The notes under the pieces are model-generated. The model made no database searches and was not told the DNA's origin. It saw only the letters and a program-made list of their open reading frames with translations. From Oscillospiraceae bacterium (GTDB lineage: Bacteria; Bacillota; Clostridia; Oscillospirales; Oscillospiraceae), in the NCBI GenBank assembly GCA_017436955.1, contig JAFSCD010000003.1, forward strand, positions 124,001 to 188,000: a DNA stretch of 64,000 nucleotides, given 5' to 3'. Every line of letters begins with the position of its first letter. Position 1 is the stretch's first letter. Of this stretch, positions 33,201 to 46,437 are shown in pieces. A program made the translations under genes and the position numbers.

Positions 33201-33242
33201 AAAAAGAAGTAACTTTTGGTAGACAAAAGTTACTTCTTTTTT
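33201..33242 (-). terminator. Terminator of tmRNA, 18-bp stem
   Basis: AAAAAGAAGTAACTTTTG (33201-33218), 5-nt loop, CAAAAGTTACTTCTTTTT (33224-33241). On the minus strand it follows the tmRNA 3' CCA and ends in a run of T. It separates tmRNA from the hairpin array. Confidence 0.9.
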
Positions 33243-33589
33243 GGTGGAGCCGAGGGGAATCGAACCCCTGTCCGAAAGCAACTTGGAAAGAACTTCTCCG
33301 GGTGCAGTTTGTTATTTACATTCCCTTATCCCGCCGGGAACAAACACCCTTCGGGACTTGGTAGCTTCATTATGCATGGTGCGCTCAAAGCTTTGCGCAC
33401 GCACGGTCTCCACTCAGATCACACCCGAGCCCGGCTCGTGGACCTTCCGGGGCGGATGGGCGCCTAATTAGGCAGCCAGAGCAACAGTATTGTTGTCAGT
33501 TAAATTTAAAAAGTACCCGTTTTATCGTGGTCAGGTGCCACGACCCGCTATTCCAGCCTCACTACCCCCGTCGAAACCAGTACGGCCCC
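33242..33589 (-). ncRNA. ssrA: Transfer-messenger RNA
   Basis: About 348 nt, rescues stalled ribosomes together with SmpB. The 5' end GGGGCCG (33589 downward) pairs with CGGCTCC before the encoded ACCA at the 3' end (33242). The T-arm is GGGGTTCGATTCCCC. The tag reading frame lies at 33468-33500 on the minus strand: codons for (T)DNNTVALAA then TAA, with the ALAA ending typical of degradation tags. Only about 40 nt separate it from ppiB, with smpB just upstream, so the RNA may be processed from a longer transcript. Confidence 0.95.
33246..33263 (+). repeat. Direct repeat of the tmRNA 3' end (att-like, copy inside ssrA)
   Basis: The genuine tmRNA 3' end on the complement strand, identical over 18 bases to 31792-31809. 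See the distal copy. Confidence 0.7.
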
Positions 33590-38047: not shown

Positions 38048-39112
38048 TTATTTTTCACTGTTTTTCCAGGCGATTTCCAGGGGCGCGTCCTCGTCCGCTC
38101 TATAGAACACAGCAGATTCTGTAACCAGGAAACACGTACTGTTATACATTCCGATATAAATATCTTTTTTTGCCAGGGTGGCGATCAGAGCTGCCTTTCC
38201 CGTTTCATCCGCTTCGTAAATATTTACCTTATTTCCTTCGATAACGGAATAGCACAGATTGGGGTAGATGTAGGAATCCTGGATCCAGGCATTTTCCATG
38301 AACAGCTTATCCACTCCGGTTTCGTTGTAACTGAAAAACTCCTCGCTTTCCCGCAGCAGAAAATACAGCTGCCCATTAACGGAGCGCAGTTCATCAAAAT
38401 ACAGGTCAGTAGCGGTGCCGTTTCGCTTGCTGCTGCCGTCACCTCTTACGAGGGAAGCTTCTTTTGTCTGTGTATCGAATTCGTAGATAGAGAATGTTTT
38501 TTCAGCGTGGTCAGTATAATAGCACCGTTCATCCAGGAAAACAAGATGGTAAAAATCTTCAAGGAAATCTTCCGTGATTCCCGTTTCGGGATCATACCGA
38601 ATAGCGCTGATTCCGCTGTCCTTGATATAGAACCAGCCATCGTGGATCATCATACCGCAGATTCCTGCATATGCGACATTGTAGCTATCAGGAAGTTCCC
38701 AAATGAGTGCGGACAAATAGTCAATACCAAAGTCCAGCTCGTAGATCTGCAGATCTGTGTAATAGTAGAAATGGTCTTCATACACAAATATGCCCCGAAC
38801 ATCTCCGGAGACCAGGAGTTCTTCCGTTTCTGTTGCGATATCCCAGCGATACAGATTGCCGTCGGCTATGTAATAGAACACATCCTTCCACTCGGTTATT
38901 TTGACAAGCCAGCTGTCAAAATACCAGTTCGGCAGGTCGATCTTTGCGTACCAGCGATCATTTTTGGAAGGCGTATCCGCAGGCGCTGTCGTGCCGCCCG
39001 TAGGGGAGGTAAGCTGCGTGGCTTCTGTCGGCGTTGTCTGCGGTGCTTCCGTGGATGCGCAGGCACCGAACAAAATTACGGACAACAGTATCCAGACTAT
39101 GCATTTTTTCAT
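38048..39112 (-). CDS. Lipoprotein, probable beta-propeller surface protein
   Basis: A 354-aa lipoprotein. Signal peptide with lipobox LFGAC, then a Thr/Pro-rich linker (about residues 22-52), then repeated blades with aromatic patterns such as DGNLYRWD, EDHFYYYTD, DGWFYIKD and NGQLYFLL, resembling DUF5050-like propellers. ATG 39112 has GAGGAG 8 nt upstream. Function unknown; attached outside the membrane. Confidence 0.82.
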   Translation of the reverse strand: MKKCIVWILLSVILFGACASTEAPQTTPTEATQLTSPTGGTTAPADTPSKNDRWYAKIDLPNWYFDSWLVKITEWKDVFYYIADGNLYRWDIATETEELLVSGDVRGIFVYEDHFYYYTDLQIYELDFGIDYLSALIWELPDSYNVAYAGICGMMIHDGWFYIKDSGISAIRYDPETGITEDFLEDFYHLVFLDERCYYTDHAEKTFSIYEFDTQTKEASLVRGDGSSKRNGTATDLYFDELRSVNGQLYFLLRESEEFFSYNETGVDKLFMENAWIQDSYIYPNLCYSVIEGNKVNIYEADETGKAALIATLAKKDIYIGMYNSTCFLVTESAVFYRADEDAPLEIAWKNSEK

Positions 39113-39144
39113 TGTTTGCACTCCTCAATTTATTCTGTAACTTG

Positions 39145-39229: not shown

Positions 39230-39258
39230 TTGTATATTCATAAATTGTGTGTTATTAT
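39230..39258 (+). promoter_or_regulatory. Promoter for the OLE-type RNA
   Basis: TTGTAT (39230-39235), 17-bp spacer, TATTAT (39253-39258). Predicted transcription start is near 39265, at the beginning of the long non-coding stretch. Confidence 0.7.
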
Positions 39259-39264
39259 ACATTT

Positions 39265-39880
39265 TGACGGTGCAGTATCCTAGTCAGAACTGCCTCTTCC
39301 AGGTAGGGCCTAAAAATCCTATGAAGGGCACATCGATGAAGTCCCTGGTGTCTGCTTTTTACGCCCAGTTTAGGGTGGATGCTGGGGGTTAAGGATCCCG
39401 GGCGCGCTCCAATGGCATGGAGCATACGACCCGGTTTCCGTGGAGACCGGAAGCTTGTGCGACGAAGTTGAGAACTCCGCGTTTCGGAAGCCTCTTCGCG
39501 TACGAATCCGGTAAGAACCTGCAAAGTGGTGCACAGAATCGTGTGCTATGTGCAGTGTAGCCTGCCTTGAGTGAGTATGTTGGGAAAGATGACAAGCATC
39601 TGTTGCTACGGCCATAGCTTCAGGTGATAGCGCTTCTGGAAATCATCCTTGCAAAAGAGGCTAAGATTTGGTTTGTTCTGTAGTGGAAATCACCTAGGCT
39701 GTCGTAACTGGGCAAGCAGGGGATTACAGTACGGACTAAGTGGCTATCGGGTAGTCATGTTGGCGACACTTGAACATACGGATCAAACGGAAACGGCCTG
39801 TGCGGCAACGGCAGGTTCTGTATGGGGAAAACCAACCCGACCTAAGCCGTAAGATTTATCCTGTTTGCTACCGTCCCAAT
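39265..39880 (+). ncRNA. ole: OLE RNA (ornate, large, extremophilic)
   Basis: About 600 nt with no plausible ORF, its own promoter and many local complementarities (for example GCTCC/GGAGC at about 39409-39424 and GCTACGGCCATAGC at 39605-39618). It lies directly upstream of an OapA-type membrane-protein gene and dxs, the signature context of OLE RNA, which forms a membrane-bound complex with OapA in Firmicutes. The identification rests on size, context and partner, not on an alignment. Ends are approximate; no terminator is seen before oapA, so read-through or processing is expected. Confidence 0.82.
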
Positions 39881-39903
39881 TCACATATTAAGGAGAAATT
39901 CCT

Positions 39904-40488
39904 GTGTCTAAATCCGACCCAAGCACCGTAAAAAAGCAGAAAAGCGAGCATATCAAATGGGTAATAACCATCTTTCTCGTAACCATCTTCGTATCCGCGC
40001 TGATCGCGCTCATCTCCGAAGAGGTTATGGATGGCAGCTCTATTTTCGTGGCGTTTGTGATTCTGCTCATCATCGTTTTGATCGGTATTATCTTTGACAT
40101 TATCGGCGTTTCCGTTACATCAGCAGACGAAACACCCTTCCACGCCATGGCGGCACGTAAGGTGCCGGGCGCAAAAGAAGCCATCAATCTGCTGCGCAAG
40201 GCCGACAAGGTCAGCTCCATCTGCAACGACGTGGTAGGTGATATCTGCGGCGTTGTTTCCGGCTCTGCATCCGCTACGATCGCGGTGCAGGTGCTGCAGA
40301 ATTTTGAGTTTTCCTGGCCCCGTTTGGTCACACTGCTGATGTCGGCGCTGGTTGCCGGCCTTACCGTTGGCGGAAAAGCCATCGGCAAGAGTTTTGCCGT
40401 TAATTCCTCCACCAATATCGTCCACACCGTTGGAAAGATCCTTTATTGGCTGCACAGCTTCCCCCGGTTGGGAAAGAAAAAGAAATGA
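39904..40488 (+). CDS. oapA: OLE-associated membrane protein OapA
   Basis: A 194-aa protein with N-terminal membrane segments (about 18-38 and 46-68) and further ones at about 135-160. The centre has FDIIGVSVTSADETPFHAMA, then GAKEAINLLRKADKVSSICND and VVGDICGVVSGSA. The DVVGD portion fits the DxxxD motif described for OapA. Basic C terminus (KKKK). GTG start at 39904, 8 nt after AAGGAG. Known OapA binds OLE RNA and is tied to Mg, cold and alcohol stress. It precedes dxs by 16 nt. Confidence 0.85.
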   Translation: MSKSDPSTVKKQKSEHIKWVITIFLVTIFVSALIALISEEVMDGSSIFVAFVILLIIVLIGIIFDIIGVSVTSADETPFHAMAARKVPGAKEAINLLRKADKVSSICNDVVGDICGVVSGSASATIAVQVLQNFEFSWPRLVTLLMSALVAGLTVGGKAIGKSFAVNSSTNIVHTVGKILYWLHSFPRLGKKKK

Positions 40489-40504: not shown

Positions 40505-42340
40505 TTGAATATTCTACAGAAGATCCACAGCCACAGCGATCTGTCCGCGCTTGACGCCAAAGAGCGCCACGAGCTTTGCGTGCAGATCCGGCAGTTCCTC
40601 ATCAATAACATCTCCAAGACCGGCGGTCATCTTGCCTCCAATCTGGGTGTTGTGGAGCTGACAGTGGCGATCGAAACCGTATTCAATACTGAAAAAGACC
40701 GTCTGGTTTTTGATGTCGGTCATCAGTCTTATGTCCATAAGCTGTTGACCGGTCGCCAGGCGGATTTTGCGCAGCTTCGGCAATTTGGCGGTATCGCCGG
40801 ATTCCCCAAGCCCAGCGAAAGCGACACCGATGCCTTCGTTGCCGGTCACGCCTCCAATTCCGTATCCATCGCATTGGGTATGGCACGGGCAAGGACCCTG
40901 CTGGAGGATGATTATAACGTTGTTGCCGTCATCGGCGACGGCGCCGCCACCGGCGGTATGGCGTACGAGGGCTTGAATGACGCTGCTGACAGCGGTGAGC
41001 CCATCGTGGTTATCCTCAACGACAACGAAATGTCCATCGACCGTAATGTGGGTGGCTTTGCCCGGCATCTGTCCCGGCTTCGCACCAAGGAAAAGTACCT
41101 GACCACCAAAGCGCATTACCGCAGCTTCTTAAACAGAGTCCCCGGCGGTAAGTTCATCTACCGCATCACCAGCCGTATGAAGGATTGGCTGCGGCGTTCC
41201 CTGCTTCCCACTACGATCTTCGAGAATATGGGCTTTACCTATCTCGGTCCCGTGGACGGTCACGATACGGAGAGCCTGATCTCCCTGCTTCAGTACGCAA
41301 AAGAGCGGCGTGCGCCGGTGCTTGTCCACGTACTGACCCAAAAGGGAAAGGGATATAAATTCGCAGAGAGCAGCCCCTCCAAATTTCATGGAGTCGGCTC
41401 CTTTGACCCCGAATCCGGTATGTCGCCGGAGAAGGGGAATGCCACTTTCTCCGATACTTTTGGCGCGAAGCTGGTGTCGCTTGCGGAAGAAAACAGCCGC
41501 ATTTGCGCCATTACCGCTGCTATGCCTGCCGGAACCGGGCTGCTGAAATTCAAGGAAGCCTTCCCGAACCGGCTGTTTGACGTGGGTATTGCGGAAGAAC
41601 ACGCGGTTTCTATGGCCGGCGGTCTTGCCAAGCAGGGTATGGTGCCGGTGGTTGCCGTATATTCCACCTTCCTGCAGCGTGCGTACGATCAGCTTCTGCA
41701 GGACATCGCTATGCTGAAGCTCCACGTGGTTTTCGCTGTGGATCGGGCAGGTCTTGTGGGTGAGGACGGTGAGACCCATCACGGTGTATTCGATGTTGGC
41801 TATCTGCGGCAGATACCCGGTATGACCCTTCTGGCGCCTGCAAGCTGCGCGGAACTGGAAGCGATGCTGGACTACGCCGTGAATAAATGCACCGGTCCTG
41901 TAGCCATCCGCTACCCCAGAGGCGGCAACGGCGCGTACACAGAGGCACAGTTTGACGCTTCCGGTATTGTGAAGCACAGAAGCGGCAAGGATTGCGCCAT
42001 TATTACCTACGGCACGCTGATCGATCAGGCGCTTGCAGCCGCTGATATTCTTGCCCAGCAGGGGACCGAAGCCAGCGTCATTCGCCTTACTGCTTTGAAT
42101 CCGCTACCTGTGGATGCCCTGAAGGCTGCCATTGGCGATATTCAAAATGTATTTGTGGTAGAAGAAGCCTGCACCGGCTCCGGTATCTGCGCTGTTGTCA
42201 GCCACGATGTACGCAAATGCACCGGCATTGATCTTGGCGGCGAATACGTGACCCACGGCAGCATCGCCCAGCTTTATAAAAAGCACGGTCTGGATGCAGC
42301 ATCCGTGGCACAGAAGATCCGGGAGGTGCTTGCTCTGTGA
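40505..42340 (+). CDS. dxs: 1-deoxy-D-xylulose-5-phosphate synthase
   Basis: First enzyme of the MEP isoprenoid pathway, TPP- and Mg-dependent, about 611 aa. Typical parts: SKTGGHLASNLGVVELT, FDVGHQSY, the TPP motif from GDGAATGGMAYEGLNDA to NDNEMSI, GIAEEHAVSMAGG, DRAGLVGEDGETHHG and RYPRGG. A TTG at 40505 gives the best start (MNILQKI); no ATG is available and the Shine-Dalgarno is weak, so translation is probably coupled to oapA. It overlaps tlyA by 4 nt. Confidence 0.95.
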   Translation: MNILQKIHSHSDLSALDAKERHELCVQIRQFLINNISKTGGHLASNLGVVELTVAIETVFNTEKDRLVFDVGHQSYVHKLLTGRQADFAQLRQFGGIAGFPKPSESDTDAFVAGHASNSVSIALGMARARTLLEDDYNVVAVIGDGAATGGMAYEGLNDAADSGEPIVVILNDNEMSIDRNVGGFARHLSRLRTKEKYLTTKAHYRSFLNRVPGGKFIYRITSRMKDWLRRSLLPTTIFENMGFTYLGPVDGHDTESLISLLQYAKERRAPVLVHVLTQKGKGYKFAESSPSKFHGVGSFDPESGMSPEKGNATFSDTFGAKLVSLAEENSRICAITAAMPAGTGLLKFKEAFPNRLFDVGIAEEHAVSMAGGLAKQGMVPVVAVYSTFLQRAYDQLLQDIAMLKLHVVFAVDRAGLVGEDGETHHGVFDVGYLRQIPGMTLLAPASCAELEAMLDYAVNKCTGPVAIRYPRGGNGAYTEAQFDASGIVKHRSGKDCAIITYGTLIDQALAAADILAQQGTEASVIRLTALNPLPVDALKAAIGDIQNVFVVEEACTGSGICAVVSHDVRKCTGIDLGGEYVTHGSIAQLYKKHGLDAASVAQKIREVLAL

Positions 42341-43140
42341 AAATTAAGAAGAGATTGGATGTCCTCCTGACGGAACGTGGCTTTTTCGACAGCCGTTCCA
42401 AAGCCCAGGCCATCATTATGGCAGGGCAGGTCTATGTAGACGGACAAAAGGCAGACAAGCCCGGCATTTCCTACGAAGAAACCGTGGATATCGAGGTCCG
42501 TGGCGAAAGCTGCCCATATGTCAGCCGGGGCGGATTGAAGCTGGAAAAGGCGCTGCGTGATTTCGGTGTTGATCCTACCGGCTTCGTTTGCAGCGATTCC
42601 GGCGCATCCACCGGCGGTTTTACCGATTGTCTGCTGCAGCAGGGCGCCAGCAAGGTTTTTGCCATCGACGTTGGTTACGGCCAGCTGGATTGGAAGATCC
42701 GCAGTGACCCCCGTGTAGTGGTTATGGAGCGCACCAATATCCGCTATGTGACCCCGGAAGACCTGGGAGAAGCGCTGGATCTTTCGGTGATCGACGTGAG
42801 CTTTATCTCGCTGAAGATCGTTTTACCTGCCATCAAGGCGCTGCTGAAGGCCACCGGTCAGGTGCTTTGCCTGATAAAGCCCCAGTTTGAAGCCGGCAGG
42901 GAAAAGGTAGGGAAGAAGGGCGTCGTCCGCGACCCCGAGACCCATAAGCAGGTGCTGGACGATTTTGTCGCTCTGGCGCATCAGCTTGATTTTACCATCC
43001 TCGGTCTGACGTTTTCTCCCGTGAAAGGACCTGAGGGAAATATTGAATTTTTGGGGCATCTTACCCTGGCTGACAGTGACAGCATTACGCCGGATACTGC
43101 CCGGGTCGTTGCCGATGCCCATACTGCACTAAAGGGGTGA
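42337..43140 (+). CDS. tlyA: TlyA-family rRNA 2'-O-methyltransferase
   Basis: A 267-aa protein: N-terminal S4 RNA-binding domain (about 1-60, RLDVLLTERGFFDSRSKAQ) and an FtsJ-type methyltransferase with DSGASTGGFTDCLLQQGA and IDVGYGQLDW. Family members methylate rRNA in both subunits. GTG start overlapping dxs. It is the standard neighbour of dxs, nadK and recN. Confidence 0.94.
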   Translation: MKIKKRLDVLLTERGFFDSRSKAQAIIMAGQVYVDGQKADKPGISYEETVDIEVRGESCPYVSRGGLKLEKALRDFGVDPTGFVCSDSGASTGGFTDCLLQQGASKVFAIDVGYGQLDWKIRSDPRVVVMERTNIRYVTPEDLGEALDLSVIDVSFISLKIVLPAIKALLKATGQVLCLIKPQFEAGREKVGKKGVVRDPETHKQVLDDFVALAHQLDFTILGLTFSPVKGPEGNIEFLGHLTLADSDSITPDTARVVADAHTALKG

Positions 43141-43145
43141 ACTGT

Positions 43146-44006
43146 ATGAAAAATATCATATTAACGCCCAATCCCTATCGGGACAAAGGTTTTCAGACCG
43201 TGCGGGAAGCCAAGCGGATCTTAGAGGAATCCGGAGTTACCTGCAAGATCTGCCTGCCTTTTGAGGTGGATTCCACCTTCGTTTTACCCACTGATCTGCA
43301 GTTTTCCCGGCTTGACCGGGAGATCCACCACTGCGACCTTGTGATCTGCTTCGGCGGTGACGGCACCATTTTGCACATGGCAAAGACCGCCACCAAAGCC
43401 GGCATCCCCATTTTGGGTGTCAACATCGGCACCATGGGCTTTATGGCAGAGCTGGAATCCACCGAGCTAGCGCTTCTTCGCAAGCTGGCAGACGATCAGT
43501 ATTCCATCGACCGCCGGCTGATGCTGGACGTGATCATCCAGCGCAATCAGGACATTATCTTCCACGATATCAGCCTGAACGACGTGGTGGTAACCAAGGG
43601 CGCTGTGGCACGAATTATGAATTTGAGTGTGGAGTGTGACGGCGTTGAGGCCGTTTCCTTCGGCGGTGACGGTGTAATTGTGGCAACACCCACCGGCTCT
43701 ACCGCCTACAGCTTGTCCGCCGGTGGCCCCATCGTGGAGCCGGAGGCTGACAGTATGCTGATAACCCCCATTTGCGCCCACGATATCGTCAGCCGCTGTA
43801 TCGTGACCTCCGGCAAACGGGTGATTACCGTTAAGATGTTCAACAGCACCAAGCGCAACGCATTTTTGAGTGTGGATGGCGGCAAGGCGTTCCGCCTGAA
43901 TCCCGAGGATCAGGTGGTCGTCCGCAAATCCAAGCTGGAGACCAAGCTGCTGCGTTTGAAAGACCGCAGTTTTTACGACGTTGTCAATATGAAGTTCAGA
44001 AGTTGA
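43146..44006 (+). CDS. nadK: NAD kinase
   Basis: Phosphorylates NAD to NADP, about 286 aa. Motifs: FGGDGTILHMAK (GGDG) and TPTGSTAYSLSAGGPIV. ATG 43146 is preferred; it is 7 nt after GGGGTGA, while GTG 43137 overlaps the tlyA stop. Confidence 0.96.
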   Translation: MKNIILTPNPYRDKGFQTVREAKRILEESGVTCKICLPFEVDSTFVLPTDLQFSRLDREIHHCDLVICFGGDGTILHMAKTATKAGIPILGVNIGTMGFMAELESTELALLRKLADDQYSIDRRLMLDVIIQRNQDIIFHDISLNDVVVTKGAVARIMNLSVECDGVEAVSFGGDGVIVATPTGSTAYSLSAGGPIVEPEADSMLITPICAHDIVSRCIVTSGKRVITVKMFNSTKRNAFLSVDGGKAFRLNPEDQVVVRKSKLETKLLRLKDRSFYDVVNMKFRS

Positions 44007-44016
44007 GGTTAGAATT

Positions 44017-44469
44017 ATGAAGAGTCAAAGACAGGCAAAAATTATGGAGATCATCTCCAACAGAGATATCGAGACCCAGGAGCATCTGCTGCTGGAACTG
44101 AATAAGGCAGGCTTCCGCAGTACCCAGGCTACCATTTCCCGCGACATTAAGGAGCTTCGTATCGTAAAGGAGCTGACCAGCTTCGGTACTTACCGCTATA
44201 CCGCCGCATCCAGCGAAGTCACCGGCACGTTTTCCAGCAAGCTGAACACCATTTTCCGTCAGTGCATCACCCGGTATGACTACGCTATGAATATGGTGGT
44301 GATCCACACGCTGCCCGGTTTGGCTTCTGCCGCCGCATCCGCTGTGGATTCCATGAATATGAGCGTCGTTGTGGGCACGCTTGCCGGCGATGATACCGTA
44401 TTTATCGTAATGCGGGATATGAATGCCGCGGCCGCCTTTTGCGGTGAGATCCAGAATCTGCTGGATTGA
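44017..44469 (+). CDS. argR: Arginine repressor
   Basis: Arginine-responsive regulator, 150 aa. N-terminal winged helix with STQATISRDIKELRIVK, C-terminal hexamer and arginine-binding domain with GLASAAASAVDSM, VVGTLAGDDTVFIV. It is in the usual position before recN; no arginine genes are in the window. Confidence 0.96.
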   Translation: MKSQRQAKIMEIISNRDIETQEHLLLELNKAGFRSTQATISRDIKELRIVKELTSFGTYRYTAASSEVTGTFSSKLNTIFRQCITRYDYAMNMVVIHTLPGLASAAASAVDSMNMSVVVGTLAGDDTVFIVMRDMNAAAAFCGEIQNLLD

Positions 44470-44490
44470 TTCTTACGGGAGGAGTACGCC

Positions 44491-46137
44491 ATGCTGAGCC
44501 TTCTGCATATTGAGAATATCGCGGTCATTGAGCGGGCGGAAATCTCCTTCGGCCGTGGTTTTCACGTGCTCACCGGCGAGACCGGTGCCGGTAAATCCAT
44601 CCTGATCGACGCCATTTCCGCCATTCTGGGCGAGCGTTCTTACCGGGATATGATCCGTACCGGCGCCGACAAGGCCTCTGTCCGGGCGGTATTTTCGGAT
44701 GTACCGGAGTATCCCTGGTTCCGGGAAAACGGCGTAGAATACGACCCCGAGGTTATGATCCAGCGGGATATTTACTTAGACGGCAGAAACACCTGCCGGG
44801 TCAACGGAACCCCGGTGACCGTTACCATCTTGCGCAAGCTGGGCATCCAGCTTATCAATATCCACGGTCAGCACGATAGTGCATCTCTGTTTGACGAGAA
44901 CAATCATCTGCGCTATTTGGATGATTTTGCTGAAAACAGTCCCTTATTGGAAACTTATGCCGAGAAATTCGCAGCGGTCGTTGCCCTGAATAAGGAGATT
45001 GAGCGCTTCTCCATGGACGAGGGCGAGAAGCTGCGCAAGCTTGAAATGCTGAAGTTCCAGATCGCTGAAATCGAAAAGGCAGAGCTTACGGCGGGTGAGG
45101 ACGAAGCGCTGGAGCAGCGGCGCAAGGTGCTGCAGAACGCCGAGAAGCTGTCCGACGGTCTTAACAGCGCTGTAGAGAGCCTCTACGGCGGCGATGATAC
45201 CGACGGTGCCATTTCCCTTATCAGCACGGCACAGCGCGATATCGCCCGTCTGAGCCGCTACACAGACAGCTTTGATGCCCTGCAGGAAAAGCTGACGGAT
45301 CTGATGTATTCCCTGCAGGATGCAGCCGATGAGCTGCGCGCCCATCGGGATGGTCTTTCCTATTCCGGCGATGAGCTGGAGCAGATCGAAACCCGGCTGG
45401 ATGTGATCCACCGTCTGCGCCGCAAGTACGGTGCCGATTGCGCCGAGATCCTTGCTTACCTGGAAAATGCCAGAAGGGAACTCGATGAGATCGAATTTTC
45501 CGACGATCATCTGGAAAAGCTGAAGCGTAAGCTGCTGAAGGCTGAAAAGGAAGCCTGGGACGCAGCCTACGCCCTTCGTGACAGCAGAATCGCTGCGGCA
45601 GAAACACTGTCTGCCCGGATCTTGGATGAGCTTTCCCAGCTGGATATGCCGAAGGTGCAGTTTTCCTGCCAGTTTACGGAGTTGGAGCTGACCGCCAACG
45701 GTGCCGACGGCGTGGCATTTTATATGTCTGCCAACGCCGGCGAAGCCCTGAAGCCCATGAGCAAGGTTGCTTCCGGCGGTGAGCTGGCGCGGATCATGCT
45801 GGCGATCAAAAATGTGCTTGCCCAGCAGGATCAGGTGCCGACCCTGATCTTCGACGAGGTGGACACCGGCGTTTCCGGCAGAGCCGCGGTCAAGGTGGCT
45901 GAAAAGCTCCACGCCATCGCCGGCACGAAGCAGGTGCTTTGCGTTACCCATTTGCCCCAGATCGCCGCAAGAGGTGACAATCACATGCTGATCTCCAAAT
46001 CCGAGCGGGACGGACGCACTTACACCACCGTCACACCGCTGGATCGGGAAGGTCGCAAACAGGAGCTTGCCCGGATCATCGGCGGCGCGCATATCACAGA
46101 AACCACCCTCAAGAGCGCAGAGGAAATGCTGCAATAA
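44491..46137 (+). CDS. recN: DNA repair protein RecN
   Basis: SMC-like ATPase for double-strand-break repair, 548 aa. Walker A GETGAGKSI (about residues 29-37), long central coiled coil, signature ASGGELARIMLAIK, Walker B LIFDEVDTGVSG. GGGAGGAG before ATG 44491. It ends the isoprenoid/repair operon. Confidence 0.97.
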   Translation: MLSLLHIENIAVIERAEISFGRGFHVLTGETGAGKSILIDAISAILGERSYRDMIRTGADKASVRAVFSDVPEYPWFRENGVEYDPEVMIQRDIYLDGRNTCRVNGTPVTVTILRKLGIQLINIHGQHDSASLFDENNHLRYLDDFAENSPLLETYAEKFAAVVALNKEIERFSMDEGEKLRKLEMLKFQIAEIEKAELTAGEDEALEQRRKVLQNAEKLSDGLNSAVESLYGGDDTDGAISLISTAQRDIARLSRYTDSFDALQEKLTDLMYSLQDAADELRAHRDGLSYSGDELEQIETRLDVIHRLRRKYGADCAEILAYLENARRELDEIEFSDDHLEKLKRKLLKAEKEAWDAAYALRDSRIAAAETLSARILDELSQLDMPKVQFSCQFTELELTANGADGVAFYMSANAGEALKPMSKVASGGELARIMLAIKNVLAQQDQVPTLIFDEVDTGVSGRAAVKVAEKLHAIAGTKQVLCVTHLPQIAARGDNHMLISKSERDGRTYTTVTPLDREGRKQELARIIGGAHITETTLKSAEEMLQ

Positions 46138-46176: not shown

Positions 46177-46182
46177 ACTTTC

Positions 46183-46437
46183 AACACGAAGAAGGGAAGA
46201 AGTAAGCGATTCCTTTTCCGCCAGAGAGCTGCCGGTGGGTGCAAGGCAGTGGGAAAAGCCGCCGAAATACCTCCCGGAGTGGTCTTTCTGAAATGTAAGT
46301 AGGGAAGAACGGGTGCGCCCGATAGCGCGCAGGTGTTTTTAACACTGTAAGGGTATTTCCGTGAGGGAATACCGAACCAGAGGTGGTACCACGTATTTTA
46401 CGTCCTCTGCCCGTCAGGGCAGGGGACTTTTTATTTT
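46183..46437 (+). promoter_or_regulatory. T-box riboswitch (tyrosine)
   Basis: Leader RNA that senses uncharged tRNA. The T-box core AGGTGGTACCACG is at 46381-46393, followed by the terminator. In Stem I the codon TAC (46268-46270) sits in the specifier position and matches tyrosine, the amino acid of the downstream synthetase. Low tRNA charging would favour the antiterminator and raise tyrS expression. Confidence 0.92.
46402..46436 (+). terminator. Regulated terminator of the T-box
   Basis: GTCCTCTGCCC (46402-46412), loop GTCA, GGGCAGGGGAC (46417-46427), then TTTTTATTTT. Confidence 0.92.

What the first reader, a model, noticed from the sequence alone, without database searches (positions are those of the whole stretch)
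39265..40488. OLE RNA with its partner gene oapA, upstream of dxs
A promoter (TTGTAT-17-TATTAT) starts a roughly 600-nt non-coding stretch that runs to a GTG-started membrane protein with a DVVGD (DxxxD) segment and the GVSVTSADETPFHAMA block, then dxs. OLE RNA is known to lie beside oapA in the isoprenoid cluster and to form a large membrane RNP. This would add a mesophilic gut-type Clostridia example of one of the largest structured bacterial RNAs. What is seen: size, lack of ORF, promoter, neighbours. What is inferred: identity.
Basis: partly seen in the sequence, partly recalled or inferred. Interest (0 to 1): 0.85.

Follow-up and report, generated by a model that had tools for sequence, protein, structure and literature searches.

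The report
OLE RNA and oapA before dxs
A gut-type bacterium carries a complete copy of OLE, a known large structured RNA of unknown exact function, next to its membrane-protein partner; the copy is ordinary, but some close relatives seem to have lost RNA and partner together while keeping the promoter, and they carry a related ion-transporter gene.

Summary
Observation and interpretation both hold. Window 39251-39890 (+) matches Rfam RF01071 (OLE) over the whole model: 435.8 bits, gathering score 50, E 1.2e-124. A 194-aa OapA with DxxxD follows, then dxs. OLE lies upstream of oapA in 78 of 80 related loci, and dxs downstream in 80 of 80. On 49 OLE sequences the Rfam pairing covaries strongly. 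The genome also encodes OapB, OapC and bS21 homologues. OLE in gut Bacillota is already published, so the element is a new member of a known kind.

What may be new is the local comparison. Two genomes of the same genus (G135, G195) lack ole and oapA, keep dxs and a matching promoter before it, and carry an MpfA-type CNNM-CBS-CorC gene. A Dxs tree puts several OLE-less genomes inside OLE-bearing clades, which suggests repeated loss. Among 200 family genomes strong CNNM hits occur in 11 of 56 with OLE and 133 of 144 without. This refines a published anticorrelation and offers natural deletion pairs. Promoter retention is clear in 4 of 19 OLE-less dxs loci scanned.

The parts
39230..39258 (+). 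Promoter: TTGTAT, 17-nt spacer, TATTAT, with an extended -10 TG at 39250-39251; expected RNA 5' end near G39266
   Evidence: Sequence; conserved in 68 aligned upstream regions; 39.8 bits against a next-best 10.3 in the window. The 5' end is inferred, not measured
39251..39890 (+).
   Evidence: cmscan 435.8 bits, E 1.2e-124; covariation on 49 sequences
39470..39493 (+). Lineage-variable apical part of one OLE hairpin, with a 20-nt insert relative to the Rfam model; folds as a small stem-loop
   Evidence: Insert in the cmscan alignment; single-sequence folds; not counted for covariation
39890..39895 (+). Probable Shine-Dalgarno AAGGAG of oapA
   Evidence: Sequence; similar purine-rich sites before oapA in many of the loci
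39904..40488 (+). oapA, 194-aa membrane protein, OLE partner
   Evidence: ORF; homologues beside OLE and dxs; weak CNNM match
40228..40242 (+). DVVGD (DxxxD) motif, residues 109-113 of OapA
   Evidence: Present in 26 of 26 aligned OapA
40505..42340 (+). [quoted passage not shown]
   Evidence: TIGR00204 681.9 bits, cut-off 465.95
42337..46137 (+). tlyA (42337-43140), nadK (43137-44006), argR (44017-44469), recN (44491-46137), same strand; dxs/tlyA and tlyA/nadK overlap by 4 nt
   Evidence: Pfam, NCBIfam for tlyA; the name recN is given from the RecF/RecN/SMC match and recall

Best explanation
This is a complete OLE RNA gene with its partner oapA at the head of a dxs-tlyA-nadK-argR-recN gene run, in what is most likely an Oscillospiraceae gut bacterium. 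One conserved sigma-A-type promoter starts transcription at about 39266 and most likely reads through OLE into oapA and dxs. OLE RNA folds, probably dimerises, binds OapA and sits at the membrane. There the RNP most likely supports divalent-metal (Mg2+) balance and stress adaptation, with OapA as a CNNM-like membrane part and the RNA standing in for the cytoplasmic CBS/CorC part of MpfA. Shown here: identity, conserved structure, gene order, promoter conservation, homologues of OapB, OapC and bS21, joint absence of ole and oapA in relatives, and a tendency to exclude MpfA-type genes. Inferred from published work or from the anatomy: transcription, dimer, RNP assembly and ion-related function.
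For: RF01071 end to end, 435.8 bits; one copy in the genome. OLE upstream of oapA in 78 of 80 loci; of the other two, L109 starts inside oapA, and L090 shows the OLE 3' end by eye. OLE in 56 and OapA (E under 1e-39) in 57 of 200 family genomes, the 56 being among the 57; the odd one, G185, has 33 nt of OLE 3' end at its contig edge. Pairing: 89.5% of cells paired and 84 of 156 pairs with changes on both sides, against 81.9% and 48.8 on average in shuffles and 38-45% and 36-47 when slid. OapB homologue between a map-like ORF and infA, only PDB hit 7k9b OapB, E 6.4e-6. OapC homologue after an rpoC-like ORF, best PDB hits YbxF, E 5e-16. bS21 present. Strong CNNM in 11 of 56 genomes with OLE and 133 of 144 without. 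No terminator-like site found between promoter and dxs on the + strand. In H. halodurans the cluster is transcribed as one polycistronic RNA (PMC12265935, section 3).
Against: No transcript, protein or phenotype data. 18 of 156 modelled pairs are non-standard in this sequence, and about nine modelled pairs fail in most of the 49 sequences, so the transferred model is not right in every detail. OapA is below the Pfam CNNM cut-off and has no solved relative by sequence (best E 0.21, unrelated). 11 of 56 OLE genomes, or 12 of 57 if G185 is counted as having OLE, also carry a strong CNNM gene, so the two are not strictly exclusive. OapB and OapC homologues do not track OLE in 22 genomes: OapB 8 of 10 with and 9 of 12 without OLE, OapC 4 of 10 and 7 of 12; L7Ae-family hits occur in 12 of 12 genomes with or without OLE. 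The window genome is about 82% complete, so its lack of a strong CNNM hit is not proof of absence.
Confidence: 0.88

Rival explanations
1. A degenerate OLE that no longer works, kept by chance beside oapA.
For: 18 of 156 modelled pairs are non-standard in the window; two genomes of the same genus have no OLE.
Against: Full-length match whose 435.8 bits lie within the range of the family hits, 316.6-504.8 bits for full-length ones; promoter, oapA reading frame and DxxxD are present.
Confidence: 0.04
2. The stretch acts mainly in cis, as a very long structured leader that controls oapA-dxs expression, and not as a trans-acting RNP RNA.
For: It lies between one promoter and oapA-dxs, 13 nt before the oapA start codon by the Rfam bound; no terminator-like site was found between OLE and oapA; in some OLE-less relatives a matching promoter stands before dxs.
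Against: In H. halodurans OLE forms a membrane RNP with OapA, OapB and OapC and its disruption gives stress phenotypes (PMC12265935, section 3); this sequence matches that class over its whole length.
Confidence: 0.06
3. About the relatives: ole-oapA was inserted several times between a dxs promoter and dxs, and the OLE-less state is ancestral.
For: Promoter retention alone gives no direction; rows with OLE were over-sampled in the tree because most loci were fetched through OapA; one part of the tree, 14 OLE-less of 21 rows with unresolved forks, gives no clear polarity.
Against: On the Dxs tree G135, G195, G053/G198, G157 and G154 sit inside OLE-bearing clades; 8 changes, at least 6 forced by well-supported branches. 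Published distribution suggests an early origin in Bacillota (PMC11332333, section 5).
Confidence: 0.15

Closest known systems
OLE RNA (RF01071), full-length type, as in Halalkalibacterium halodurans and Clostridium acetobutylicum
   Same: Full model length, conserved core, oapA directly downstream, dxs next, homologues of OapB, OapC and bS21 in the genome
   Different: 20-nt insert in one hairpin relative to Rfam; probable gut host; a promoter conserved directly upstream in this lineage (whether the model species have the same one was not checked)
OLE variant 1 (TANB77) and variant 2 (RF39) of gut Bacillota (PMC11332333, section 5)
   Same: Gut-associated Bacillota, OLE RNA
   Different: Those have shorter P7-P9 or lack P7 and P8, and largely lack OapB and OapC; this one covers model 1-616 and the genome has OapB and OapC homologues
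MpfA/CorB family (CNNM-CBS-CorC_HlyC)
   Same: OapA is weakly CNNM-like; MpfA-type genes are common where OLE is absent
   Different: OapA here shows no CBS or CorC domain and carries DxxxD

Membership tests
OLE RNA (RF01071) | Match to the curated covariance model above gathering score | tested here: met
   435.8 against 50 bits, model 1-616 of 616
OLE RNA (RF01071) | Conserved, covarying secondary structure | tested here: met
   49 sequences, 84 of 156 pairs with changes on both sides, 0 of 500 shuffles as high
OLE RNA (RF01071) | oapA directly downstream | tested here: met
   oapA starts 13 nt after the Rfam bound; oapA downstream of OLE in 78 of 80 loci
OLE RNA (RF01071) | Full-length type rather than variant 1 or 2 | tested here: met
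   No large deletion in the model alignment, a 20-nt insert instead; stems P7-P9 were not named one by one
OLE RNA (RF01071) | k-turn that binds OapC; P13 site that binds OapB | not tested
   Candidate protein partners found; the RNA sites were not examined one by one
OLE RNA (RF01071) | Abundant RNA, membrane localisation, dimer | not testable with these tools
   Needs cells or purified RNA
OapA | DxxxD motif | tested here: met
   26 of 26 aligned proteins
OapA | Distant similarity to the CNNM domain, without CBS or CorC domains | tested here: met
   PF01595 18.9 bits, E 0.0013, under the cut-off of 28.4; no CBS or CorC hit at E 0.01
OapA | Four transmembrane helices, dimer, CorB-like fold | not testable with these tools
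OapA | Binds OLE RNA | not testable with these tools
   Needs a binding assay
OapB (partner elsewhere in the genome) | Sequence similarity to solved OapB | tested here: met
   7k9b, E 6.4e-6, the only PDB hit at E up to 1; no Pfam hit
OapC/YbxF (partner elsewhere in the genome) | L7Ae family, YbxF-like | tested here: met
   YbxF structures are the two best PDB hits, E 5e-16 and 6e-16; PF01248 45.5 bits
MpfA | CNNM followed by CBS and CorC_HlyC domains | tested here: not met
   The window protein has only a sub-threshold CNNM match; the G135, G195 and G049 proteins do have all three domains

The most novel reading that the evidence does not exclude
In gut Oscillospiraceae ole and oapA behave as one removable unit that has been lost several times from between a conserved promoter and dxs, leaving that promoter to drive dxs, while an MpfA-type transporter is present elsewhere. 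One member of the genus (G049) has both systems, as a transition would. These are natural deletion pairs that would let the OLE-MpfA replacement hypothesis be tested between very close species.
Probability: 0.6. Interest if true: 0.5.

Novelty: new member of a known kind. Interest (0 to 1): 0.35.

Why it matters
OLE is among the largest conserved bacterial RNAs without a known biochemical function. The copy here adds little by itself. The within-genus comparison matters more: relatives that differ in ole-oapA but keep dxs and a matching promoter narrow down what is lost and gained together, and point at metal-ion transport as the shared task.

Tried and rejected
Coding potential: no mechanical ORF over 89 aa lies within the OLE stretch, and the RNA model explains it. 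Naming OapA by Pfam or NCBIfam: no dedicated model hit. OapB and OapC as markers of OLE: rejected, they are as common in OLE-less relatives. Promoter retention as a general rule: not supported. Of 19 OLE-less dxs loci scanned, 4 score 27 bits or more (G135, G195, G053, G198, the last two with the same site), 2 score 15-16 (G154, G003), 2 are at or under the generic level (G002 10.4, G157 4.9) and 11 score below zero; for the first six 0 of 200 approximate dinucleotide shuffles scored as high, but that is also true of G002 and of G074 at -4.3. 4 of 6 loci with OLE from other genera score under 6, so the matrix does not describe the whole family. G166 was scanned but left out of the tree, because its dxs is split over two contigs; G010, G012, G114, G112 and G177 gave no full Dxs, so five of the 22 mixed-genus genomes could be neither scanned nor placed. 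L092 was dropped from the tree as too short. Genus g32 was left out of the mixed genera because its one genome without an OLE call, G185, shows an OLE 3' end at a contig edge; two genomes, G142 and G186, were never listed with their genus. Literature: the listings (the last shows 10 of 6,830) showed no paper on loss of ole before dxs or on its promoter in Oscillospiraceae; the words dxs and promoter do not occur in the main text of PMC11332333. Older subscription papers were not looked up, so this is not proof of absence.

Full report
Observation. The window 39251-39890 (+) matches RF01071 from model position 1 to 616 with 435.8 bits (gathering score 50) and E 1.2e-124; two other Rfam families pass in the window, tmRNA and a T-box. 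The Rfam bound overlaps the -10 element, so the RNA itself most likely starts near G39266. The ORF 39904-40488 is 194 aa with DVVGD at 109-113, and dxs follows at 40505 (TIGR00204). The genome, 1.54 Mb in 18 contigs and about 82% complete, has one OLE.

Related loci. The OapA search of genome contigs gave 295 relatives, of which the best 80 were kept; their titles are mostly Oscillospiraceae or Clostridia MAGs, many from animal gut samples. cmscan found OLE upstream on the same strand in 78 of 80. L109 begins inside oapA; L090 meets a contig end, and the last part of OLE can be read in it by eye. A Dxs match lies downstream of oapA in 80 of 80, 79 within 0-400 nt and one overlapping by less than 60 nt as computed. 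The nearest of the fetched relatives is L031, OapA 82% and Dxs 83% identical.

Structure. On 49 OLE sequences (window plus 48 of the 78, chosen by hand without the truncated ones and without many near-duplicates) the Rfam pairing, transferred through the window, gave 89.5% standard pairs, 84 of 156 pairs with changes on both sides and a covariation score of 0.268. Shuffles averaged 81.9%, 48.8 and 0.126, and none of 500 reached the observed values; slid versions gave 38-45%, 36-47 and 0.062-0.078. The structure comes from the family model and partly from the window, which helps it against the slid versions. Some modelled pairs fail in most sequences (columns 114-126, 115-125, 171-211, 172-210, 238-277, 239-276, 397-466, 413-452, 593-602), so the transferred model is not exact. 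The window itself forms 138 of 156 modelled pairs. The 20-nt insert near 39473-39492 folds as a small apical stem-loop, and many relatives have stems of differing sequence there; this part was not counted for covariation.

Promoter. In 68 upstream regions (window plus the 67 loci with enough sequence) CTTGTATATT and TG-n-TA-nn-AT stand out from variable flanks. A matrix from 58 distinct 32-mers gives the window promoter 39.8 bits and nothing else in 64 kb above 10.3. The matrix includes the window's own site, so that score is inflated; the OLE-less loci below are not in the matrix.

Partners. A 97-aa protein between a map-like ORF and infA matches solved OapB (7k9b, E 6.4e-6, only hit). An L7Ae protein after an rpoC-like ORF has YbxF structures as best hits; the names map and rpoC are from reading the ORFs. 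bS21 is present. In 22 genomes of eight genera that contain members with and without OLE, OapB was found in 8 of 10 with and 9 of 12 without, OapC in 4 of 10 and 7 of 12. This agrees with the published statement that both must have other roles (PMC11332333, section 8).

Family distribution. Of 200 genomes drawn from the family, 56 have OLE (which used Infernal's stricter filters and can lose weak matches) and 57 have OapA with E under 1e-39. All 56 are among the 57. Two further weak OapA hits, G051 and G153, are probably CNNM proteins; for G153 the place overlaps its CNNM match. The 57th, G185, has 33 nt of OLE 3' end at its contig edge, and G184 has OLE cut by a contig end. Strong CNNM matches (E under 1e-20) occur in 144 genomes: 11 of 56 with OLE and 133 of 144 without (Fisher p 7e-24; genomes are not independent). 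With G185 counted as having OLE this would be 12 of 57 and 132 of 143. Among genomes at least 90% complete and at most 5% contaminated it is 7 of 38 and 88 of 90 (by hand; Fisher). The 27 weak CNNM hits are all in genomes with OLE and are probably OapA itself. Within the eight mixed genera 19 of 22 genomes have one system only, and a within-genus permutation gives p 0.003. The exceptions are G049 and G177 (both) and G012 (neither). The window genome has no strong CNNM hit but is incomplete.

Relatives without OLE. In G135 polIV, nudix, dxs, tlyA and the start of nadK are kept in order, and ole and oapA are absent. Before dxs stands CTTGTATATACGCATAAATTGTGATAATATAC, 32.5 bits, 163 nt from the dxs start. 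In G195 dxs, tlyA and nadK are kept, but neither polIV nor nudix was found in the 7.5 kb fetched, so its upstream flank differs; CTTGTATATTCATGCAATTTATGCTAGAATAA stands 104 nt before dxs, 32.8 bits. G053 and G198 share a site of 27.7 bits. In the other 15 of 19 OLE-less loci the evidence is weak or absent (see Tried and rejected). cmscan finds no OLE in the G135 and G195 loci. G135 and G195 each have a CNNM-CBS-CorC_HlyC protein, and so has G049, which also has OLE. A Dxs tree of 68 rows needs 8 changes of the OLE label, at least 6 forced by well-supported branches, with G135, G195, G053/G198, G157 and G154 inside clades that hold OLE. Ten of the 18 OLE-less rows came from genera in which the sample showed no OLE, most of them in one OLE-less clade. 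The rows were not an even sample, the root is arbitrary and a Dxs tree is not a species tree, so loss is favoured rather than proven.

Known work. Fernando & Breaker 2024 (PMC11332333; abstract, sections 5, 6, 8, 9 and passages) give 2,822 Bacillota hits, near-complete OLE-OapA coupling, the MpfA anticorrelation, species with both, and the OapA-CNNM similarity. Lyon & Breaker 2025 (PMC12265935; abstract, part 1 of section 3, section 6) summarise phenotypes, partners, the polycistronic transcript and the membrane model. Kretsch et al. 2025 (PMC12286853; passages) show the OLE dimer. Lyon et al. 2022 (PMC9723947; passages) show OapC binding at a k-turn. PMC10898510 (passages) notes that dxs often lies beside ole and oapA; of PMC12054373 only passages were seen. 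So element, partner, neighbour and anticorrelation are all known; within-genus loss with promoter retention was not seen in the searches made.

Verdict. The finding is confirmed and correctly named. As an element it is ordinary for its class; the comparative setting is moderately interesting.

Noticed in passing
window 33242-33589 (-): tmRNA gene, 170.9 bits, beside ORFs that read like smpB and a cyclophilin (these two names from reading only).
   Followed up: no
window 46180-46410 (+): T-box leader, 124.4 bits, just upstream of an ORF that reads like tyrosyl-tRNA synthetase (name from reading only).
   Followed up: no
window 38048-39121 (-): A 357-aa lipoprotein-like gene (weak DUF5050) lies between the nudix gene and OLE here; in G049 the nudix gene stands about 130 nt before OLE and no match to this gene was found in the 9 kb fetched.
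   Followed up: partly
L053, L054, L056, L075, L077, L083, L091, L100, L102, L105, L108, between OLE and oapA: Computed gaps of 72-360 nt between OLE and the oapA match where the other loci have 7-48; in L102, L105 and L108 part of this is because the match starts inside the protein. L090 shows a palindromic repeat-like insert in this gap.
   Followed up: no
G008:C84:1-841, G105:C40:41812-42644, G111:C10:23538-24299: Unusually long OLE matches of about 760-840 nt, suggesting large inserts.
   Followed up: no
G112, G177 (genus g11): OLE and OapA are present but no full-length Dxs match was found, so OLE there is probably not in a dxs operon; the neighbours were not examined.
   Followed up: no
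L123 3610-3740 and L124 3890-3960: Inverted repeats, seen by eye and of different sequence, between the retained promoter and dxs in both OLE-less congeners.
   Followed up: no
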